Origin: Pseudomonadota bacterium
Lineage (GTDB): Bacteria > Pseudomonadota > Alphaproteobacteria > Rhizobiales > Hyphomicrobiaceae
Direction: 5' to 3'
Assembly: GCA_018242295.1 (NCBI GenBank)
Contig: JAFECE010000009.1
Coordinates: 203,818 to 267,817 of the forward strand
Length of the DNA: 64,000 nucleotides
In this document: positions 48,253 to 63,445 of the stretch, one piece after another
Layout of the letters: the number at the start of each line of letters is the position of its first letter
How positions within the stretch are numbered: the first letter of the stretch is position 1
Translations under genes and position numbers: made by a program
Notes under the pieces: generated by a model
Databases searched by the model: none
The model's input: only the letters and a program-made list of their open reading frames with translations
What the model was told of the DNA's origin: nothing

Positions 48253-48317
48253 AATAATAGGACGTTACGGTTCATGCGCGGACGGCTCGGGGAGTCGCGA
48301 TCCGCGTGGGGGGATGT

Positions 48318-50594
48318 ATGATTTCGAATTGGCAAAGTGTCCGGCAACGGACGCTGCGGCTCACTGCGCTCTCGGTTGTCCTTGGCGTCGCGCCCGCGAA
48401 CGCACAAGAGTCGGCTCCGACCGTGCCGCTTCCCGAGGTCGTGGTCCAGGGGCAGACGCAACCCAAGCCCACGCAAAAAAAATCGGCTTCCAAAGCGAAG
48501 CTGACGGCCAAATCGCAAGCAGCCGCGACCTCCGCGGCGAAAGAGCCAGTAGCCGTCAGCGATGGCGCGAGCACGCCGGCGGGAGCGACCAATGGTTACG
48601 TCGCAACGGAGGGGATTGCCGCCACCAAGACATCAACTCCGCTCGTCGAGGTTCCGCAATCGATATCGACGGTCACGCGTCAGCAGCTCCAGGATCGCGC
48701 CCCGCAAAACCTGGGAGACGCAATTCAGTATGTACCGGGCGTACGTGTGAACGTTTCTGGATACGATCCACGCTTCGATACCTTCAACATCCGTGGTTTC
48801 GATGCCACCTATATGGGCATCTATCGCGACGGTCTGCGCCAGATGAGCAGTGGTTTCGGGCAATTTCGAACCGAACCTTATGGTCTCGATAGCGTCACGA
48901 TCCTGCGCGGGCCGGTTTCGTCACTATACGGCGCCAGCAATGCCGGCGGCATCGTGGACATGTATTCGAAGCGTCCGACCGAGACGCCGTTCCACGAAAT
49001 CGAGTTCCAAGCCGGAAGCTATGACCGGTTTCAAGGTAACTTCGATTTTTCCGGTCCGACGGCTCCCGGAAGCAACGTGCTTTACCGGATGACGGGCGTC
49101 GTGCGCGACAGCAATACCGAAGCAATGGGCGTTCCGGACGACAGACTCTATCTGGCGCCGGCGCTGACGTTCAAGATCGATCCCGACACCAAGCTCACGA
49201 TCCTTGGCGAGTACATGGCCGCCAAGACTGGCGGCAACATGGCTTGGTACAACGACTATAGTTCCGGCCATGCGCGGCGTACGAACATTTGGTCAGGCGA
49301 CCCCGCCTTCAACGCCTTCGACCAAACCCAAGAACGCATCGGCTACGAATTCGAGCATCGCTTCAACGACGCGATCACGTTCCGCCAGAAGGCGCGCTAT
49401 TCGCATCTCAGTTCTGTCGGCGAATACATCGACATCATCGAACTCATAGAACCGGACGTCTGGAGCCGCGCCAACGGCGTTGTCGAAAGCAACGTGAATA
49501 ATTTTGTCATCGATAATCAGGCCGAAGCGCGCTTCTCGACCGGACCGCTGAAACACGTCGCTCTCGGGGGCGTTGATCTTGCCTATGTCTGGTACAAGGA
49601 AGGGAACGGCTTCGGCGATCCCATCGAAGACGGCGGCATTGTTCCTCCTCTCGTCAACTATAACTATGCGGCGCAGCATATCCCAACACCGGCGATCTCG
49701 ACGGTCACGCATCAAGATCAACTCATGGTCGGCACCTATTTGCAGGACCAGATCAAGCTCGATCGTTGGGTGTTGACCGTTGGCGGCCGGCGTGACTGGG
49801 TAAATACCGCCACCGACACGGATGGAGATGTCCTCAAACAAAACGATGCAGCGTGGACTGGACGAGCCGGCCTCAGCTATTTGTTCGATTCAGGTTTTGC
49901 GCCGTACATCGCTTACGGCACCGGCTTCGTCGCCAATTCGGGTACGGATCTCGTTACTGGCAAGCCCTTCGATGCGACCACATCGGAATCGAAAGAGGTC
50001 GGATTTAAATATTTTATTCCGGGCTACAACGCATCGATTGCTTCCGCTGTTTTTGACATCCAGCAGACCAATGGGCTCAGGGACCAATGCGTCGACGTCA
50101 ACGACGTCACCGAATGCGGTTCCGTGCAGACCGGCGTCTTGCGCTCGCGCGGCTTCGAGATTGAGGGCACCACGACGCTCAATAACGGGCTGAGCCTTCT
50201 AGCTTCGTATTCCTACATCGACATGCGCATCGAAGACAACACGGGCGGAAACCAGGGCAACGTGCTTTCGAGCGTGCCTTTCAACACGTTCTCTCTCTGG
50301 GGCGATTATACGCTACGGTCAGGACCGGCGGTAGGACTGGGCTTCGGACTTGGTGTCCGTTACATCGGATCGAGCTTCGGCGACGACGAGAACACGTTCA
50401 AGAATAGTGGGCACACGCTCTTCGATGCGGCCCTTCACTACGATCTCGCAAAATTTGATCCACGCTTCGCCGGAGCGCGTTTGCAGATCAATGCCAACAA
50501 CGTCTTCGACACGCGAGACGACGTCTGCTCGTCCAATTATTGCTATCTCGATCAGGGCCGCACGGTTCTCGGAAGCCTGCGGTATCGTTGGTAG
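48318..50594 (+). CDS. TonB-dependent siderophore receptor (ferrichrome type)
   Basis: 758 residues from ATG 48318; a GTG at 48306 is the alternative. A signal peptide (VAPANAQ) is followed by a Lys/Pro/Ala-rich linker, then the plug of FhuA-type receptors: LVEVPQSISTVTRQQLQDRA, DAIQYVPGVRVNVSG, NIRGFDATYMGIYRDGLRQM, SVTILRGPVSSLYGASNAGG. The barrel ends SLRYRW. The PepSY gene across the divergent promoter supports iron-siderophore uptake. Ligand identity unknown. Confidence 0.92.
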   Translation: MISNWQSVRQRTLRLTALSVVLGVAPANAQESAPTVPLPEVVVQGQTQPKPTQKKSASKAKLTAKSQAAATSAAKEPVAVSDGASTPAGATNGYVATEGIAATKTSTPLVEVPQSISTVTRQQLQDRAPQNLGDAIQYVPGVRVNVSGYDPRFDTFNIRGFDATYMGIYRDGLRQMSSGFGQFRTEPYGLDSVTILRGPVSSLYGASNAGGIVDMYSKRPTETPFHEIEFQAGSYDRFQGNFDFSGPTAPGSNVLYRMTGVVRDSNTEAMGVPDDRLYLAPALTFKIDPDTKLTILGEYMAAKTGGNMAWYNDYSSGHARRTNIWSGDPAFNAFDQTQERIGYEFEHRFNDAITFRQKARYSHLSSVGEYIDIIELIEPDVWSRANGVVESNVNNFVIDNQAEARFSTGPLKHVALGGVDLAYVWYKEGNGFGDPIEDGGIVPPLVNYNYAAQHIPTPAISTVTHQDQLMVGTYLQDQIKLDRWVLTVGGRRDWVNTATDTDGDVLKQNDAAWTGRAGLSYLFDSGFAPYIAYGTGFVANSGTDLVTGKPFDATTSESKEVGFKYFIPGYNASIASAVFDIQQTNGLRDQCVDVNDVTECGSVQTGVLRSRGFEIEGTTTLNNGLSLLASYSYIDMRIEDNTGGNQGNVLSSVPFNTFSLWGDYTLRSGPAVGLGFGLGVRYIGSSFGDDENTFKNSGHTLFDAALHYDLAKFDPRFAGARLQINANNVFDTRDDVCSSNYCYLDQGRTVLGSLRYRW

Positions 50595-57044: not shown

Positions 57045-57342
57045 GGTCTACCCCGTAACGCTTCTCCCGACGGGCACATTATAAGCAATTTTGTGCCGTC
57101 CGTTGTAGACCGCGTTCTATCGGATCAATCCGGTAAACCGCAACACCGTCGAACAGTCTACGGACTAAAGAATACGAACCCTGCTGGTTCGAAACATTTT
57201 TTCTCCGGGGCACCGGCGGCTTCAATTCCGCCCGAATTTCGCGGCTTATGCACACTCCTTGCCGAATGCAGATGTCCCGGTTTTCCAAGCCTGGCTGGCG
57301 CGCGCCGCATTGCGGAGTGTGTGTTCCGCGTTCGATGAGACC
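57045..57342. other. Divergent region between patatin gene and tRNA-like pair
   Basis: No gene. It must hold the promoters of the patatin gene (minus) and of the tRNA-like transcript (plus). I searched by eye for a sigma-54 GG-N10-GC site and found none at a sensible place. Confidence 0.4.
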
Positions 57343-57409
57343 GGGTATTAGCTCAGCGGTAGAGCACCCGCTTAGGCGGGAGGACGGGGGTTCGATTCCT
57401 TCATACTCA
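57343..57409 (+). ncRNA. tRNA-like RNA 1 with shortened anticodon arm
   Basis: 67 nt. A six-pair acceptor stem GGGTAT/ATACTC, then TA, D arm GCTC-AGCGGTA-GAGC, and a T arm with canonical loop TTCGATT are all present. Between D and T arms only 14 nt form the anticodon arm: CCCG-CTTAGG-CGGG (six-base loop) or CCCGC-TTAG-GCGGG (four-base loop); a normal arm has 17. The T stem contains two G-U pairs. No CCA is encoded. Read as tRNA the anticodon would be TAG, but decoding is doubtful. Confidence 0.75.
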
Positions 57410-57413
57410 CACA

Positions 57414-57480
57414 GCGACTAGCTCAGGGGTAGAGCACAGGACTGTTATCCTGCTGTCGCGGGTTCGATTCCCGCTTCGCA
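57414..57480 (+). ncRNA. tRNA-like RNA 2 with six-base anticodon loop
   Basis: 67 nt, four bases after the first. The D arm GCTC-AGGGGTA-GAGC and T arm GCGGG-TTCGATT-CCCGC are perfect. The anticodon stem CAGGA/TCCTG is perfect but its loop is CTGTTA, one base short of the normal seven (nominal GTT, asparagine). The acceptor stem pairs only GCGA with TCGC, about three pairs short. No CCA is encoded. It looks like a tRNA mimic, not a working tRNA. Confidence 0.75.
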
Positions 57481-57538
57481 ATCCGAATGCCAATCGGAAA
57501 CTGCTTGATGGGAACCGGCCATGACTTCCGCTCTTCAC

Positions 57539-57658
57539 ATCCGGGCAACCGGATTTGGAGGGCAAGCGGTGGGACGTTCTGCGCTTCCGGCAGATACCGT
57601 CGCCACGCACCGCTCTGCCGCCGGGCACCGGCGCGAGGTCATCCGTAAGGATGCTCGC
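57539..57658 (+). ncRNA. Candidate structured RNA between tRNA-like pair and slipin
   Basis: Three hairpins in order: ATCCGG-GCAA-CCGGAT (57539-57554, GNRA loop); AGCGGTG (57565-57571) with CACCGCT (57608-57614) enclosing GACG/CGTC and CTGC/GCAG; and GCGAG-GT-CATCC-GTAA-GGATG-CTCGC (57633-57658, GNRA loop). No open frame with a ribosome site fits. The density of stems and GNRA loops suggests RNA function, possibly one transcript with the tRNA-like elements; a T-run at 57740-57745 could end it. Confidence 0.45.
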
Positions 57659-57820
57659 GGCCGCAACCCGAACGAAAGGGCGAAGCGAGACGACTGAAGC
57701 CGGAGCCCGCGCTCTTGCTGTGAAGACACGGCCGGTTACCTTTTTCGATCATTGCGAACGAAACGATCGCTGAACAAAGCAAAAGAATAGAAGGTCAAGA
57801 AGGGCCCAGGAGTATTTTCA

Positions 57821-58978
57821 GTGCAGCGCGCAGGACTATTTTCTGAGTTTACGGTCAAGGACGATGAGCGAGCCTTTTTGTCCCGCGACGGCCGCTTCGA
57901 GCGGCTACTCGAGCCGGGCCGGCACAGGGCTTTCGATTGGAACCGCCGGCTCTCCGCTGAAGTGGTGAAGGTCGTGCGCGCGGAAATCCCGGCCGAAAAG
58001 GCGCTGCTGCTCAGGAAGACCCATCCGGAGCTTGCGGAAGAACATTTCGCCATCGTCCAGCCCGCGTCTTCGGAGGTCGCCATCGTCTCGTTCGACGGCG
58101 AGCCGAAACACCTGGTTCTTCCCAACACCACGCGGGCGTTCTGGAAGACGGTCACGCGTGTCGATGTTGAAACGATCAACACGAGCAGTGACATCAGGGT
58201 GTCGAAGCGCCATCAGGACAAGCTCGATCTTGCCCGCACGTCGGTCATCACCTCGGCGGTCGTCGAGGCGTATGAGGCTGGCCTGCTCATGGTCGACGGC
58301 AAGCTTGAGGAGCGGCTGGCGCCTGGGCGTCATGCATTCTGGACGGTTGGCCGCACGGTCAAAATCGTCAAGGCCGATCTGCGCCCGCAACCGCTCGAAG
58401 TAACGGCGCAGGAAATCCTGACCAAGGATCGGATTGGCATTCGCGTGACGTTGACGGCATTCGTCAAGGTCGTCGACGCTGAGAAATCGGTGCTGTCGAC
58501 GAGTGATGTGAACGGCACGCTCTACCGGATGATTCAATTCGCCATACGCGAAGCCGTTGCGGCGCGTACGCTCGATGAAATTTTGGCGGCGCGCGACACG
58601 ATCGACAACGAGGTGCGAACGTTCGTATCCGAGCGGGCGAGACAGCTCGGTGCTGAGGTCGGCGAAATCGGCGTCAAGGACGTGATCCTGCCGGGCGACG
58701 TGCGCGAACTCTTGAACAAGGTCGTTGAGGCCGAACGTGTGGCGAAGGCGAACTTGATCCGTCGTCAGGAGGAAACGGCGTCGACCCGTTCATTGCTCAA
58801 CACGTCGAAATTGATGGAAAACAATCCGCTGCTTCTCCGCCTCAAGGAACTTGAAGCACTCGAAAAGCTCGTCGAGAAGGTCGGGCGCATCGACCTTCAT
58901 ACGGGCGCCGGTGCCCAGGGCTTCGACGCTCTTCTGACGAACCTGGTTCGGATCAAGGGCTCTCTGGAGAGCGAGTGA
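57821..58978 (+). CDS. Slipin / SPFH (band 7) family protein
   Basis: 385 residues, GTG start with AGGAG eight bases upstream. An unusual soluble N-terminus of about 100 residues (LFSEFTVKDDERAFLSRDGR) precedes the SPFH core: EAYEAGLLMVDGKLEERLAP, ILTKDRIGIRVTLTAFVKVV, QFAIREAVAARTLDEILAAR, ARQLGAEVGEIGVKDVILPG, followed by a helical region KVVEAERVAKANLIRRQEET. No membrane hairpin is evident. Slipins organise membrane microdomains and recur near bacterial RNA-repair genes. A terminator follows directly. Confidence 0.9.
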   Translation: MQRAGLFSEFTVKDDERAFLSRDGRFERLLEPGRHRAFDWNRRLSAEVVKVVRAEIPAEKALLLRKTHPELAEEHFAIVQPASSEVAIVSFDGEPKHLVLPNTTRAFWKTVTRVDVETINTSSDIRVSKRHQDKLDLARTSVITSAVVEAYEAGLLMVDGKLEERLAPGRHAFWTVGRTVKIVKADLRPQPLEVTAQEILTKDRIGIRVTLTAFVKVVDAEKSVLSTSDVNGTLYRMIQFAIREAVAARTLDEILAARDTIDNEVRTFVSERARQLGAEVGEIGVKDVILPGDVRELLNKVVEAERVAKANLIRRQEETASTRSLLNTSKLMENNPLLLRLKELEALEKLVEKVGRIDLHTGAGAQGFDALLTNLVRIKGSLESE

Positions 58979-60983: not shown

Positions 60984-63323
60984 TTAGAAGCTCACCGTCA
61001 CGCCCGCATTGAACGAACGTCCTTGGCCGGGAGCGGGCGAGATCAGACCGATCTGCCCCGCAGCCGCATAGTCGGCCCAGTCGACACCGCCGAGGGGCGG
61101 GTAATAGAGCTTGTCAAATAGGTTCGCGACACCGAAGTCAAAGCGCACGTTCTGCCATTGATAGCTGGATCGCAAATCGACGAGCGCGTAGCCTGGCGTC
61201 GTCGGCTCGTGACGCAACGCGTTGACGTCATTTTTGTCTTTGACGAGCGTCAGCTGCACTGCATTCGACCAGTTGCCGAGCTGATGGCTGAGCGTCAGCT
61301 GCGCGTTGAGCGGCATCATGTGATACAGCGTGTCACCGGTATCGAGGTTCTCGCCGTTGACATAGCCGATGATGCCGGCGAGGCCGAACTGGCCGTATAC
61401 GGGGCTTTCCCAAAGATTGAGACTTCCGGAAACGTTGACGCCGTAAAGCTGCGCGGCATGGTTGGCAAACTGAAGGGTCACGAACTCGGTCGACGGCATG
61501 GCCATCGGACCCATACCGCCCATGTCCATGCCGCCGCCCATACTGGACTGCGACTTTAGGAAGTTGGCATCGATGTAGTCCCGCACGTAGGTGTAGTAGG
61601 GCGTGACCTTGATCTCCCACGCGCGGCGCGCGCTGTCATGCCAGCCAGCCGTGAAGCTGACCGTATTGCCAATCTCGGGTTTGAGATCGAGATTACCGAC
61701 GTAGCCGTTGGCATCGCCGTACCAGCCGATCATATCGGATGCCATGGCTCCCGTGCTCCAGGCGTACCGTTCGTAGAGATTGGGCGAGCGGGTTTTGCGG
61801 GCATAGCCGATTTCGTATGTCTCGTTGGCCGACGGTTCATAGCGGGTGAGGGCCGTAACATCGAAGTTGGCGTCGGTGCGCGCATGGCTCCGCGCGTTGA
61901 ATGCCGTCGCGTCAGCTGCGTACATCGAGCTGTATCCAGTCACGTCGCCGGTATCCATCCACACCATGTCATTGCGGACTCCGATCAGCGTGCTCCACGC
62001 GTGGTCCCAACGGTGTTCCCACTCCGCAAAGGTTCCGAGGCGCTGGCGGGTGCCGTGATTGATATCGACAAACGTGTCCGGCCCCATCATTGGATCCATG
62101 CCTGCGACCGGCGGCCACCAGTCGTTCAGCGTTTGGCGATGGAACTCGTTGCCGATGCGCAGGACATCCACAGTCGTCAAAGGTACTTCGGCTTTTACTG
62201 AATAACCCGCGTCCGTTCCGTCGACGCTCATTGGCATCGCGCCAGACTTGTCTGCCAACATATCCATCCGATGCTTCGTCTGATGATAGTAGGCGCGAAA
62301 GTCGAGCGTGCCCCAATCGAAATGAGTCAGGTAGCGAGTGTTGAAAAGCCACGCATCGTTATCGACCATATCCATGCGCTGGTTGACGAACCCCTGGTAG
62401 GGAACCGAGGCATAGACGCCTTGGAAGGTGAACAGGTCGGCGCCGTTCCGAATTCCCAACGACAAGGCATGATTGTAGGCTTGATAGAGAGTTGACCGGA
62501 CGATAGGGCCATCGTCCCCCCGCGCATAATCATCAGCCTTCGCCCACGCACCCGTATACCCAAGGCTGAAGTTCTGCGTTGCAGCCTCCGCATGTGCTGA
62601 TGTCGTGATGCCGTCCCCGTTGCTGCGGTAGAATGCAGAGATGCTGCCCGACGTCCGGACGCCTTCAGCGAGATCGGCAAACTGCGGCGGGCGTGACTCG
62701 ACGTTGATCGTCCCACCAAGGCTGTCGCCGCCTTTGCTGACAGGTGTCACGCCCGCGATCACGTCCGCGGTGGCCACTTGCGATGGGTCGATGTACGACA
62801 GCGGCGGATTCATTTGATTGGTGCAGGCTGGCGAGATGACCATGCCGTTGACCAAAACCTTGACCCTGTCGCCGTTGAGGCCATTGATCGCCGGTAGGCT
62901 CGAAATTCCACCGGATGAGTAGACGCTGACGCCCGGCACTTGGGTAAGAAGTTGCGCCGTGTCGCTCGTATTGGGCCGCTGCGATTGGATTGCCTGTCCG
63001 GAAAGACGGGTGGTCGTGAGGGGGACAGCAAGCCCCTTCGCTCCAACGCCGGCGGTCGCGGATGCCGGAGGTGCGTCCAGTGGCGTGGATGGCGGAGCTG
63101 TCGGTACGGTATTTTCGAAATCCGCGTTCGAAGGTGCGGAAGACTGGATTTTCTTCTTAGCTGCTTTTTTCGGAGCTTGGCTTTCGCGGTCCTGTTGAAC
63201 CACGACGGGTGGCAAAGGTTGGCTTGAAGTTTCTTGCGCCACCACCGCTCTGCTTTGAAGGCCTAAGGCAATGACAGTCGTCGCAGCTGCGCCAAGCAGC
63301 TGAGTTCGCCGTGTGCGATACAT
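60984..63323 (-). CDS. TonB-dependent copper receptor (OprC/NosA-like), Met-rich
   Basis: 779 residues from ATG 63323 (GGGGA upstream). A signal peptide (AVVAQ) leads to a Lys/Ala/Pro linker, a plug with QLLTQVPGVSVYSSGGISSL and VKVLVNGMVISPACTNQMNP, and a barrel ending GVTVSF. Met clusters in predicted loops (MDMLADKSGAMPM, AGMDPMMGPD, SMGGGMDMGGMGPMAM) and the CxNQM motif are typical of copper receptors. The neighbours (DUF2946, Met/His-rich protein) agree. Confidence 0.92.
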   Translation of the reverse strand: MYRTRRTQLLGAAATTVIALGLQSRAVVAQETSSQPLPPVVVQQDRESQAPKKAAKKKIQSSAPSNADFENTVPTAPPSTPLDAPPASATAGVGAKGLAVPLTTTRLSGQAIQSQRPNTSDTAQLLTQVPGVSVYSSGGISSLPAINGLNGDRVKVLVNGMVISPACTNQMNPPLSYIDPSQVATADVIAGVTPVSKGGDSLGGTINVESRPPQFADLAEGVRTSGSISAFYRSNGDGITTSAHAEAATQNFSLGYTGAWAKADDYARGDDGPIVRSTLYQAYNHALSLGIRNGADLFTFQGVYASVPYQGFVNQRMDMVDNDAWLFNTRYLTHFDWGTLDFRAYYHQTKHRMDMLADKSGAMPMSVDGTDAGYSVKAEVPLTTVDVLRIGNEFHRQTLNDWWPPVAGMDPMMGPDTFVDINHGTRQRLGTFAEWEHRWDHAWSTLIGVRNDMVWMDTGDVTGYSSMYAADATAFNARSHARTDANFDVTALTRYEPSANETYEIGYARKTRSPNLYERYAWSTGAMASDMIGWYGDANGYVGNLDLKPEIGNTVSFTAGWHDSARRAWEIKVTPYYTYVRDYIDANFLKSQSSMGGGMDMGGMGPMAMPSTEFVTLQFANHAAQLYGVNVSGSLNLWESPVYGQFGLAGIIGYVNGENLDTGDTLYHMMPLNAQLTLSHQLGNWSNAVQLTLVKDKNDVNALRHEPTTPGYALVDLRSSYQWQNVRFDFGVANLFDKLYYPPLGGVDWADYAAAGQIGLISPAPGQGRSFNAGVTVSF

Positions 63324-63445
63324 AATGCATTTCCCCACATGACCGCGATCGGCGCGCACGAATGGGACGCCGTTTGGTCAGCTCTTGGATGATTTGATTG
63401 AGATATGGCGGATCATCCGCAGAAGCGGACGATCCAAAATCGTCA

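What the first reader, a model, noticed from the sequence alone, without database searches (positions are those of the whole stretch)
57343..57480. Two tandem 67-nt tRNA-like RNAs with shortened anticodon loops
Both have normal D arms and the canonical T loop TTCGATT, equal length (67 nt) and a four-base spacer, so they look selected, not random decay. Yet each has an anticodon arm too short for decoding (14 and 16 nt against 17), a reduced acceptor stem and no CCA. A tRNA mimic, such as the tRNA-like module of bacterial Y RNAs, would keep exactly the elbow features seen here. Two independent tRNA genes decaying in parallel is the dull alternative.
Basis: partly seen in the sequence, partly recalled or inferred. 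Interest (0 to 1): 0.8.

Follow-up and report, generated by a model that had tools for sequence, protein, structure and literature searches.

The report
Twin tRNA-mimic RNA beside slipin gene
Two odd tRNA look-alikes turn out to be the core of a large conserved RNA encoded just before a slipin-type ring-protein gene; some related bacteria carry a similar RNA beside RNA-repair genes, so it is probably a working RNA, not two dying tRNA genes.

Summary
The two elements (57342-57410, 57414-57480) are the middle of a conserved structured RNA of about 480 nt (about 57265-57745), directly upstream of a slipin (SPFH/Band_7) gene (57821-58978). In 103 family genomes the RNA model scores at least 113 bits in 38 and full-length slipin is in 38; 37 have both, and the two exceptions are contig ends. 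Helices covary. Element 1 usually has a shrunken anticodon loop (7 nt in 5 of 39) but in relatives keeps G3-U70 (34 of 39) and an encoded CCA (31 of 39). Element 2 has a 7-nt loop with many anticodons (36 of 39); its 6-nt loop in the window is a one-base loss absent from the sister species. Several gammaproteobacterial slipins of this family, with a divergent RNA, sit beside rtcB/rtcA, rtcR or rlaP. The window genome has no detected RtcB, RlaP or Ro60, so this is not a classical Y RNA. Best reading: RNA partner of a slipin assembly in the tRNA-damage response. A "novel tRNA-like molecule" with SPFH proteins was predicted in 2016 (recalled, paper not held), so I call it a new variant.

The parts
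57224..57238 (+). AATTCCGCCCGAATT, palindrome-like motif about 50 nt upstream of the RNA's conserved 5' hairpin; possible operator or promoter element
   Evidence: strict form in 6 of 39 leaders (shuffles 0), loose form TTYYGCC..AA in 17 of 39 (shuffle mean 0.05, maximum 2) at a near-constant distance
57265..57335 (+). 5' domain: hairpin 57274-57295 and hairpin 57297-57327 carrying the conserved CUGGCGCG...GUGUUCC motif
   Evidence: A6: 25 pairs, 93.3% paired, 12 pairs with double changes, 0 of 500 shuffles
57342..57410 (+). tRNA-like 1: D arm, T arm, 7-position acceptor with G3 (57344)-U70 (57407) and a C1xA72 mismatch, 5-bp anticodon stem capped by TTAG (57372-57375), no anticodon; tail ACA at 57411-57413 where most relatives have CCA
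57414..57480 (+). tRNA-like 2: D, T and anticodon arms, short acceptor, no CCA; loop CTGTTA (57442-57447), one base shorter than in the sister genome
57507..57743 (+). 3' domain: long rod closed by GGGAACCGGCC/GGCCGGUUACC, with the motifs GAUACCG and CUNAAG; the T run after it is 57741-57745
   Evidence: A5: 74 pairs, 83.6% paired, 61 pairs with double changes, 0 of 500 shuffles
57821..58978 (+). slipin gene (GTG start, 385 aa): N-terminal beta domain 1-135, SPFH/Band_7 147-318, long C-terminal helices; no clear transmembrane segment
   Evidence: Pfam PF01145 1.4e-29; AlphaFold2 mean pLDDT 80.7; hydropathy

Best explanation
A two-part module: a structured non-coding RNA (about 480 nt) holding two tRNA mimics, and the slipin it precedes. 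Shown by comparison: the RNA is conserved and folded; element 1 is an acceptor/elbow mimic that has usually lost a normal anticodon loop, element 2 an elbow/anticodon-arm mimic without an acceptor end; the module is inherited as a unit in the family; some gammaproteobacterial slipins of the same protein family lie in rtcBA, rtcR or rlaP RNA-repair loci behind a related, rearranged leader. Inferred: the RNA is processed from or transcribed ahead of the slipin mRNA and stays with slipin rings as their RNA cofactor, presenting tRNA-shaped surfaces that recruit or occupy tRNA-handling enzymes (anticodon nucleases, RNA ligase or nucleotidyltransferase, perhaps alanyl-tRNA synthetase) when tRNAs are damaged. 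In the window genome it would act without RtcB, RlaP or Ro60.
For: Co-inheritance: 37 of 103 genomes with both, 64 with neither, 1 and 1 mixed, both mixed cases at contig ends. RNA-to-slipin distance 262-507 nt, same strand, 37 of 37. T-loop motif within 800 nt upstream of slipin in 78 of 78 testable loci (2 of 80 had too little upstream sequence) against 27 of 397 control windows; two motifs 55-90 nt apart in 65 of 78 against 3 of 397. Motif GTGTNCC just before the first T loop in 39 of 42 close and 21 of 36 distant loci (L112, L114 and L118 among them) against 10 of 407 control windows; GATACC between the first T loop and slipin in 39 of 42 and 19 of 36 against 30 of 401. Covariation, 0 of 500 shuffles in each of three domains. 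Between window and sister, 0 of 4 changes in the tRNA-pair region fall in paired columns. rtcB-rtcA-leader-slipin in L112 and L114, rtcB-leader-slipin in L111; rtcR beside leader-slipin-rlaP in Citrobacter. RtcB in 27 of 39 element genomes against 21 of 64 others, p 5e-4, not corrected for phylogeny. Papers, passages only: PaFlo8 SPFH gene in the P. aeruginosa rtc locus (PMC13086221); slipin, rtcB and a tRNA array under one repressor in Anabaena (PMC10272220).
Against: No expression, binding or phenotype data. The window genome has no detected RtcB, RlaP or Ro60, and 12 of 39 element genomes lack RtcB. The RNA was never seen away from slipin, which also fits a cis-acting leader. In the rtc loci the leader is rearranged (one full tRNA-like plus a hairpin with a T arm, read by eye) and the pair model scores only 46.7-59.9 bits (L111, L112, L114, L118), no better than ordinary tRNA pairs, which reach 90; in E. 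coli and Citrobacter it scores 10.2 bits and ARAGORN finds nothing, so that version is a by-eye candidate. Other gamma loci (L108, L115) have no repair gene among the two neighbours scanned, and 72 neighbours in other loci gave no recurrent partner. G3-U70 and CCA are not universal in distant loci (by eye, e.g. L093, L105). RlaP is not enriched (6 of 39 against 8 of 64, counted).
Confidence: 0.47

Rival explanations
1. Cis-acting leader: the RNA is the 5' untranslated region of slipin mRNA and uses its tRNA mimics (for example as targets of RNase P, an anticodon nuclease or a tRNA-binding protein) to switch slipin expression when tRNAs are damaged.
For: Always directly upstream, same strand, 37 of 37 in the family; in several loci the 3' domain ends about 20-110 nt before the start codon, and only some copies have a T run there; no copy found away from slipin.
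Against: Very large and elaborate for a leader; element 1 keeps an acceptor stem and CCA in most relatives, which a simple cleavage target would not need.
Confidence: 0.28
2. Decoy: the mimics are sacrificial substrates or competitive inhibitors of anticodon nucleases; the fast-changing anticodons of element 2 track different nucleases.
For: 13 different anticodons among the 36 seven-base loops, with position 33 U in 32 of 36; competitive inhibition of an anticodon nuclease was suggested as a possibility for YrlA (PMC7790460, passages).
Against: No nuclease partner identified; GUU is the commonest anticodon (14 of 36); does not explain the 3' domain or slipin.
Confidence: 0.12
3. Element 1 is a real aminoacylation substrate: it is charged with alanine through G3-U70, and the charged RNA serves a non-translational reaction or a sensing role with slipin.
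For: G3-U70 in 34 of 39, against 2 of 44 ordinary tRNAs of this genome, both tRNA-Ala; CCA in 31 of 39; among G000 tRNAs the closest to L050's element 1 is tRNA-Ala(CGC), 75%.
Against: Discriminator base is U in 24 of 39 and A in 10 of 39, while the two tRNA-Ala here carry A; the window's own element 1 is closest to tRNA-Gly and tRNA-Val (69%) and L045's ties Val and Ala (73%); the window copy has lost CCA and has C1xA72; some distant relatives lack G3-U70 (by eye).
Confidence: 0.1
4. Two ordinary tRNA genes decaying in parallel.
For: The window copy has small private defects (6-nt loop 2, no CCA).
Against: Conserved as a pair with covariation and a fixed position before slipin.
Confidence: 0.01

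Closest known systems
SPFH/Band-7-associated tRNA-like non-coding RNA of RNA-repair systems (Burroughs and Aravind 2016, Nucleic Acids Res 44:8525; recalled from its abstract, paper not held)
   Same: tRNA-like RNA coupled to an SPFH/Band-7 gene and, in some Gammaproteobacteria, near rtcB/rtcA/rtcR
   Different: Here: a tandem pair, 5' and 3' domains adding up to about 480 nt, no RtcB, RlaP or Ro60 detected in the genome; whether the 2016 work described any of this could not be checked
Bacterial Y RNA YrlA (RF02553) with Ro60/Rsr
   Same: tRNA mimicry, gene beside its presumed protein partner, RNA-repair context in relatives
   Different: No YrlA-level score, no TROVE protein found, slipin instead of Ro60, two mimics instead of one
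tmRNA (RF00023)
   Same: Acceptor-type tRNA-like domain with G3-U70 and no normal anticodon arm (tmRNA features recalled)
   Different: No tmRNA match in the window; two elements in tandem; no tag reading frame was looked for
Vault particle (major vault protein plus vault RNA)
   Same: SPFH-type protein linked with a non-coding RNA; the full-length slipin model matches MVP structures, best Foldseek E 6e-11
   Different: The N-terminal domain alone gives no MVP match in the 50 rows shown; stomatin, prohibitin and HflK/C score better; RNA unrelated as far as known

Membership tests
Functional decoding tRNA | 7-nt anticodon loop with a triplet | tested here: not met
   Loops of 4 and 6 nt in the window
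Functional decoding tRNA | tRNA fold score above Rfam gathering | tested here: met
   48.5 and 42.8 bits against 29
Functional decoding tRNA | 3' CCA encoded, as in the other tRNA genes found in this genome | tested here: not met
   CACA after element 1 and no CCA after element 2; 44 of 44 ordinary tRNA genes encode CCA
YrlA / bacterial Y RNA | Score above RF02553 gathering | tested here: not met
   No match in window 57150-57850 at E up to 5; 26.9 bits over the pair of L117 against 69
YrlA / bacterial Y RNA | Ro60/Rsr (TROVE) partner in the genome | tested here: not met
   PF05731 not found in G000; 2 of 60 relatives positive, neither among the 9 genomes then known to carry the element; control found it in 1 of 14 genomes
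tmRNA | Score above RF00023 gathering | tested here: not met
   No match in the window
SPFH-associated tRNA-like RNA (2016) | tRNA-like RNA next to an SPFH/Band-7 gene | tested here: met
SPFH-associated tRNA-like RNA (2016) | RNA-repair gene context | tested here: inconclusive
   Met in some gamma relatives; no RtcB or RlaP found in the window genome
SPFH-associated tRNA-like RNA (2016) | Same RNA sequence and structure as the published one | not testable with these tools
   Paper not held

The most novel reading that the evidence does not exclude
A bacterial ring- or vault-like ribonucleoprotein: a soluble SPFH protein assembles around a 480-nt RNA that splits tRNA mimicry into an alanylatable acceptor half with no working anticodon and an anticodon half with no acceptor, and it senses or buffers tRNA damage without RtcB or Ro60. 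A candidate reduced form sits in about 30% of complete E. coli genomes.
Probability: 0.2. Interest if true: 0.92.

Novelty: new variant of a known kind. Interest (0 to 1): 0.7.

Why it matters
It defines a large structured RNA with no Rfam family in the release searched (other than the tRNA hits inside it), widespread before one slipin family in Alphaproteobacteria, with related leaders in Beta- and Gammaproteobacteria and less certain ones in two cyanobacteria and an acidobacterium. It divides tRNA mimicry between two modules and gives SPFH proteins a concrete RNA link. The protein family reaches a tractable host: 1,623 of 5,426 complete E. coli genomes match the slipin gene, and 1,620 cover at least 80% of its upstream stretch. 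That makes a role of SPFH proteins in RNA repair directly testable.

Tried and rejected
Rejected: decay of tRNA genes; YrlA membership; tmRNA; a sigma-54 promoter in the window (best score 14 of 24, 0.64 of shuffles as good). In that scan 8 of 82 loci reached 0.04 or less; the top scores (22 of 24) were E. coli L197, Citrobacter L198 and L109, and only L197 and L198 have the full TGGCACG; a similar box in Burkholderia L199 was seen by eye. A phage home: no match of the slipin protein at E 1e-20 in 50,697 phage records. The vault reading was weakened by the N-terminal domain. RlaP co-occurrence is not enriched. The three next-best RNA-model hits looked at in the family (84.7-90.2 bits) are ordinary tRNA pairs or arrays, so the 113-bit cut is clean. 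A neighbour scan of 72 genes found 2 RtcB, 1 RTC and 1 RtcR and otherwise no repair family among the 25 families shown. PADLOC gave nothing for four proteins. Not searched: class- or phylum-wide counts with the RNA model, metagenomes, viral contigs.

Full report
WHAT IS THERE. Window 57342-57410 and 57414-57480 both pass the Rfam tRNA threshold (48.5 and 42.8 bits, gathering 29); ARAGORN reports only the first, with an undefined anticodon. Element 1: acceptor positions 1-7/66-72 with a C1xA72 mismatch and G3-U70, normal D and T arms, a 5-bp anticodon stem capped by TTAG, tail CACA. Element 2: D, T and anticodon arms, loop CTGTTA, short acceptor. The other 44 tRNA genes found in this genome (46 matches less these two) all have a three-base anticodon and an encoded CCA, and none is more than 69% identical to either window element.

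RELATIVES. BLASTN with 57200-57800 in 60 genomes (own included) gave a match in 41, most of them short hits on ordinary tRNAs; beyond the window's own genome, eight cover the pair: one other species of the genus (G014, 95%) and seven diverged genomes, one of another family. In all eight, and in the window, a slipin/SPFH gene lies just downstream on the same strand. A scan of genome contigs with the slipin alignment returned 80 named loci (the best 80 of 341), about half Hyphomicrobiaceae or other Rhizobiales, but also sphingomonads, Maricaulis, Parvularcula, Gammaproteobacteria, two cyanobacteria and a Terriglobia genome. Of the 78 with at least 400 nt upstream, 78 have a T-loop motif within 800 nt upstream, against 27 of 397 control windows from the same loci; 65 have two motifs 55-90 nt apart, against 3 of 397. 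L069 and L096 were untestable. The 5' motif GTGTNCC lies within 170 nt before the first T loop in 39 of 42 close and 21 of 36 distant loci, against 10 of 407 control windows, and GATACC between the first T loop and slipin in 39 of 42 and 19 of 36, against 30 of 401.

ONE RNA, NOT TWO tRNAs. From the 45 loci L041-L085 I aligned 38 plus the window (39 rows). L066 and L069 (little upstream sequence), L072, L076 and L085 (no pair under the strict T-loop pattern) and L061 and L084 (no 5' motif under the strict pattern) were set aside before alignment. RNAalifold shows a 5' domain, the two tRNA-like domains and a 3' rod. Pair counts: tRNA pair 39 pairs, 97.1% of cells paired, 27 pairs with changes on both sides; 3' domain 74 pairs, 83.6%, 61 pairs; 5' domain 25 pairs, 93.3%, 12 pairs; in each case 0 of 500 shuffles reach the observed values, and sliding the partners drops pairing to 34-51%. 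The structures were predicted on the alignments then counted, which favours them, and the shuffles do not remove relatedness. The window sequence alone folds somewhat better than shuffles (z -2.7, 1 of 100 as good), but its minimum-energy fold keeps only some of the tRNA arms. Apart from tRNA, no Rfam family reached its gathering score over the RNA in the window or in the loci tested.

FEATURES OF THE TWO MIMICS (39 rows). Element 1: 3:70 is G-U in 34 and A-U in 5 (ordinary tRNAs of this genome: G-U in 2 of 44, both tRNA-Ala); CCA at 74-76 in 31; discriminator U in 24, A in 10, G in 3, C in 2. With a 5-bp stem the loop is 7 nt in 5 and 3-6 nt in 29; after extending the stem inward it is 4 nt in 20, 3 in 10, 5 in 3, 6 in 5 and 7 in 1. 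Against this, ARAGORN reads a three-base anticodon in element 1 in 15 of 39, an undefined one in 23, and makes no call in 1 (my count). Element 2: 7-nt loop in 36, 6 in 3 (window, L062, L065); 13 different anticodons, GUU commonest (14 of 36); U33 in 32 of 36. So element 1 has usually lost a normal anticodon loop, while element 2 keeps a decoding-shaped loop of drifting sequence. The window's short loop 2 is local: its sister L041 has 7 nt. The missing CCA is shared with L041 but not with L042 (ACCA). Between window and sister the tRNA-pair region differs at 4 columns, none paired; in the 3' domain 10 of 16 differences are in paired columns and the window forms a standard pair at 8 of those 10; in the 5' domain 3 of 5 are in paired columns and the window pairs at only 1. 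The window also has 2, 12 and 6 positions of the tRNA-pair, 3' and 5' consensus structures that it does not pair in standard fashion, gaps included.

CO-INHERITANCE. A covariance model of the pair (R1) scores 113 bits or more in 38 of 103 family genomes; the next genome is at 90, and the three next-best hits are ordinary tRNA pairs or arrays. Full-length or long slipin matches (E 1e-78 or better) are in 38 of 103. 37 share both; G022's contig starts inside the RNA and G116's ends 341 nt after it. G077 has only the C-terminal 85 residues of a slipin and no RNA or T-loop motif in the 4 kb around it, a remnant without RNA. Genomes whose only match is a distant SPFH protein (23-36% identity) have no R1 hit at 113 bits. 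Within the window's genus 2 of 22 carry the module, so it is patchy. The RNA-slipin gap is 262-507 nt, median 360 (37 genomes).

LINK TO RNA REPAIR. L112 and L114 read rtcB-rtcA-leader-slipin and L111 rtcB-leader-slipin. Their leaders are rearranged: one full tRNA-like, a hairpin and a T arm on a short stem (by eye), with R1 at 46.7-59.9 bits, no better than ordinary tRNA pairs; the tie rests on position, T-loop pairs and, in L112, L114 and L118, the GTGTNCC motif. Citrobacter has rtcR, then a leader, slipin and RlaP; E. coli a similar leader, slipin and RlaP, with no rtcR annotated in the stretch. Those leaders (a GUGUUCC hairpin and a single T arm behind a TGGCACG box) were recognised by eye; R1 gives 10.2 bits and ARAGORN nothing. 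1,623 of 5,426 complete E. coli genomes match this slipin gene. Burkholderia L199 has a tandem pair by R1 (64.3 bits), within the range of ordinary tRNA pairs. In the window's family RtcB is in 27 of 39 element genomes against 21 of 64 others (p 5e-4, phylogeny ignored), but the window genome (99.99% complete) has no RtcB, RlaP or Ro60 match. Papers seen as passages only: PMC13086221 places the SPFH gene paFlo8 in the P. aeruginosa rtc locus, with no occurrence of 'tRNA' in its main text; PMC10272220 lists slipin alr0740 and rtcB among genes raised in a repressor mutant that also controls a tRNA array in Anabaena; PMC7790460 suggests that YrlA's tRNA-like domain could inhibit an anticodon nuclease.

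THE PROTEIN. AlphaFold2 (38 sequences, mean pLDDT 80.7, pTM 0.57) gives an N-terminal beta domain, the SPFH domain and long helices. None of 11 family members tested shows a clear membrane anchor (maximum Kyte-Doolittle 1.29 in the window; L058 borderline at 1.71). Foldseek finds stomatin (1.5e-15), prohibitin and HflK/C, then major vault protein at 6e-11 and QmcA; the N-terminal domain alone has no match at E 0.001 or better and no MVP in the 50 rows shown. The vault analogy is only suggestive.

MECHANISM AND NOVELTY. Shown by comparison: a folded, conserved, slipin-linked gene unit with divided tRNA mimicry, and an RNA-repair neighbourhood for some members of the protein family. Inferred: that the RNA acts in trans with slipin, and on what. 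The cis-leader rival is serious because the RNA was never seen away from slipin. In the listings and passages of my literature searches no held paper described this RNA; the 2016 Burroughs and Aravind abstract, recalled and not read here, names a novel tRNA-like molecule with SPFH/Band-7 proteins, so I file this as a new variant, not a new kind.

Noticed in passing
L106 and L110, about 430 to 300 nt upstream of slipin: In two cyanobacterial loci a T arm with ATACTCC-GCCA comes before GGAGTAT-TA-D arm: the tRNA halves look circularly permuted (by eye).
   Followed up: no
L108 213-5609 and L114 5470-11393: Slipin loci with 20 and 14 ARAGORN tRNA calls nearby (counts include the leader's own tRNA-like), reminiscent of the Anabaena trn array.
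   Followed up: no
window 57224-57238: Conserved AATTYCGCCNNAATT motif before the RNA; a longer form made from the window itself occurs once in the genome. It may be a regulator site.
   Followed up: partly
window 57175-57191: Hairpin CGAACCCTGCTGGTTCG with a T-rich tail on both strands between the patatin-like gene and the RNA; the count is not above shuffles.
   Followed up: no
L197 5500-6000: The E. coli slipin leader is an unannotated structured RNA candidate behind a sigma-54-like box; 1,620 of 5,426 complete genomes cover at least 80% of the stretch.
   Followed up: partly
G000, whole genome: The 44 tRNA genes found include no Ile-GAU or Ala-UGC, perhaps because an rRNA operon is not assembled.
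   Followed up: no
window 48306-50594 (+) and 60984-63359 (-): Two large TonB-receptor-like reading frames flank the region (by eye).
   Followed up: no
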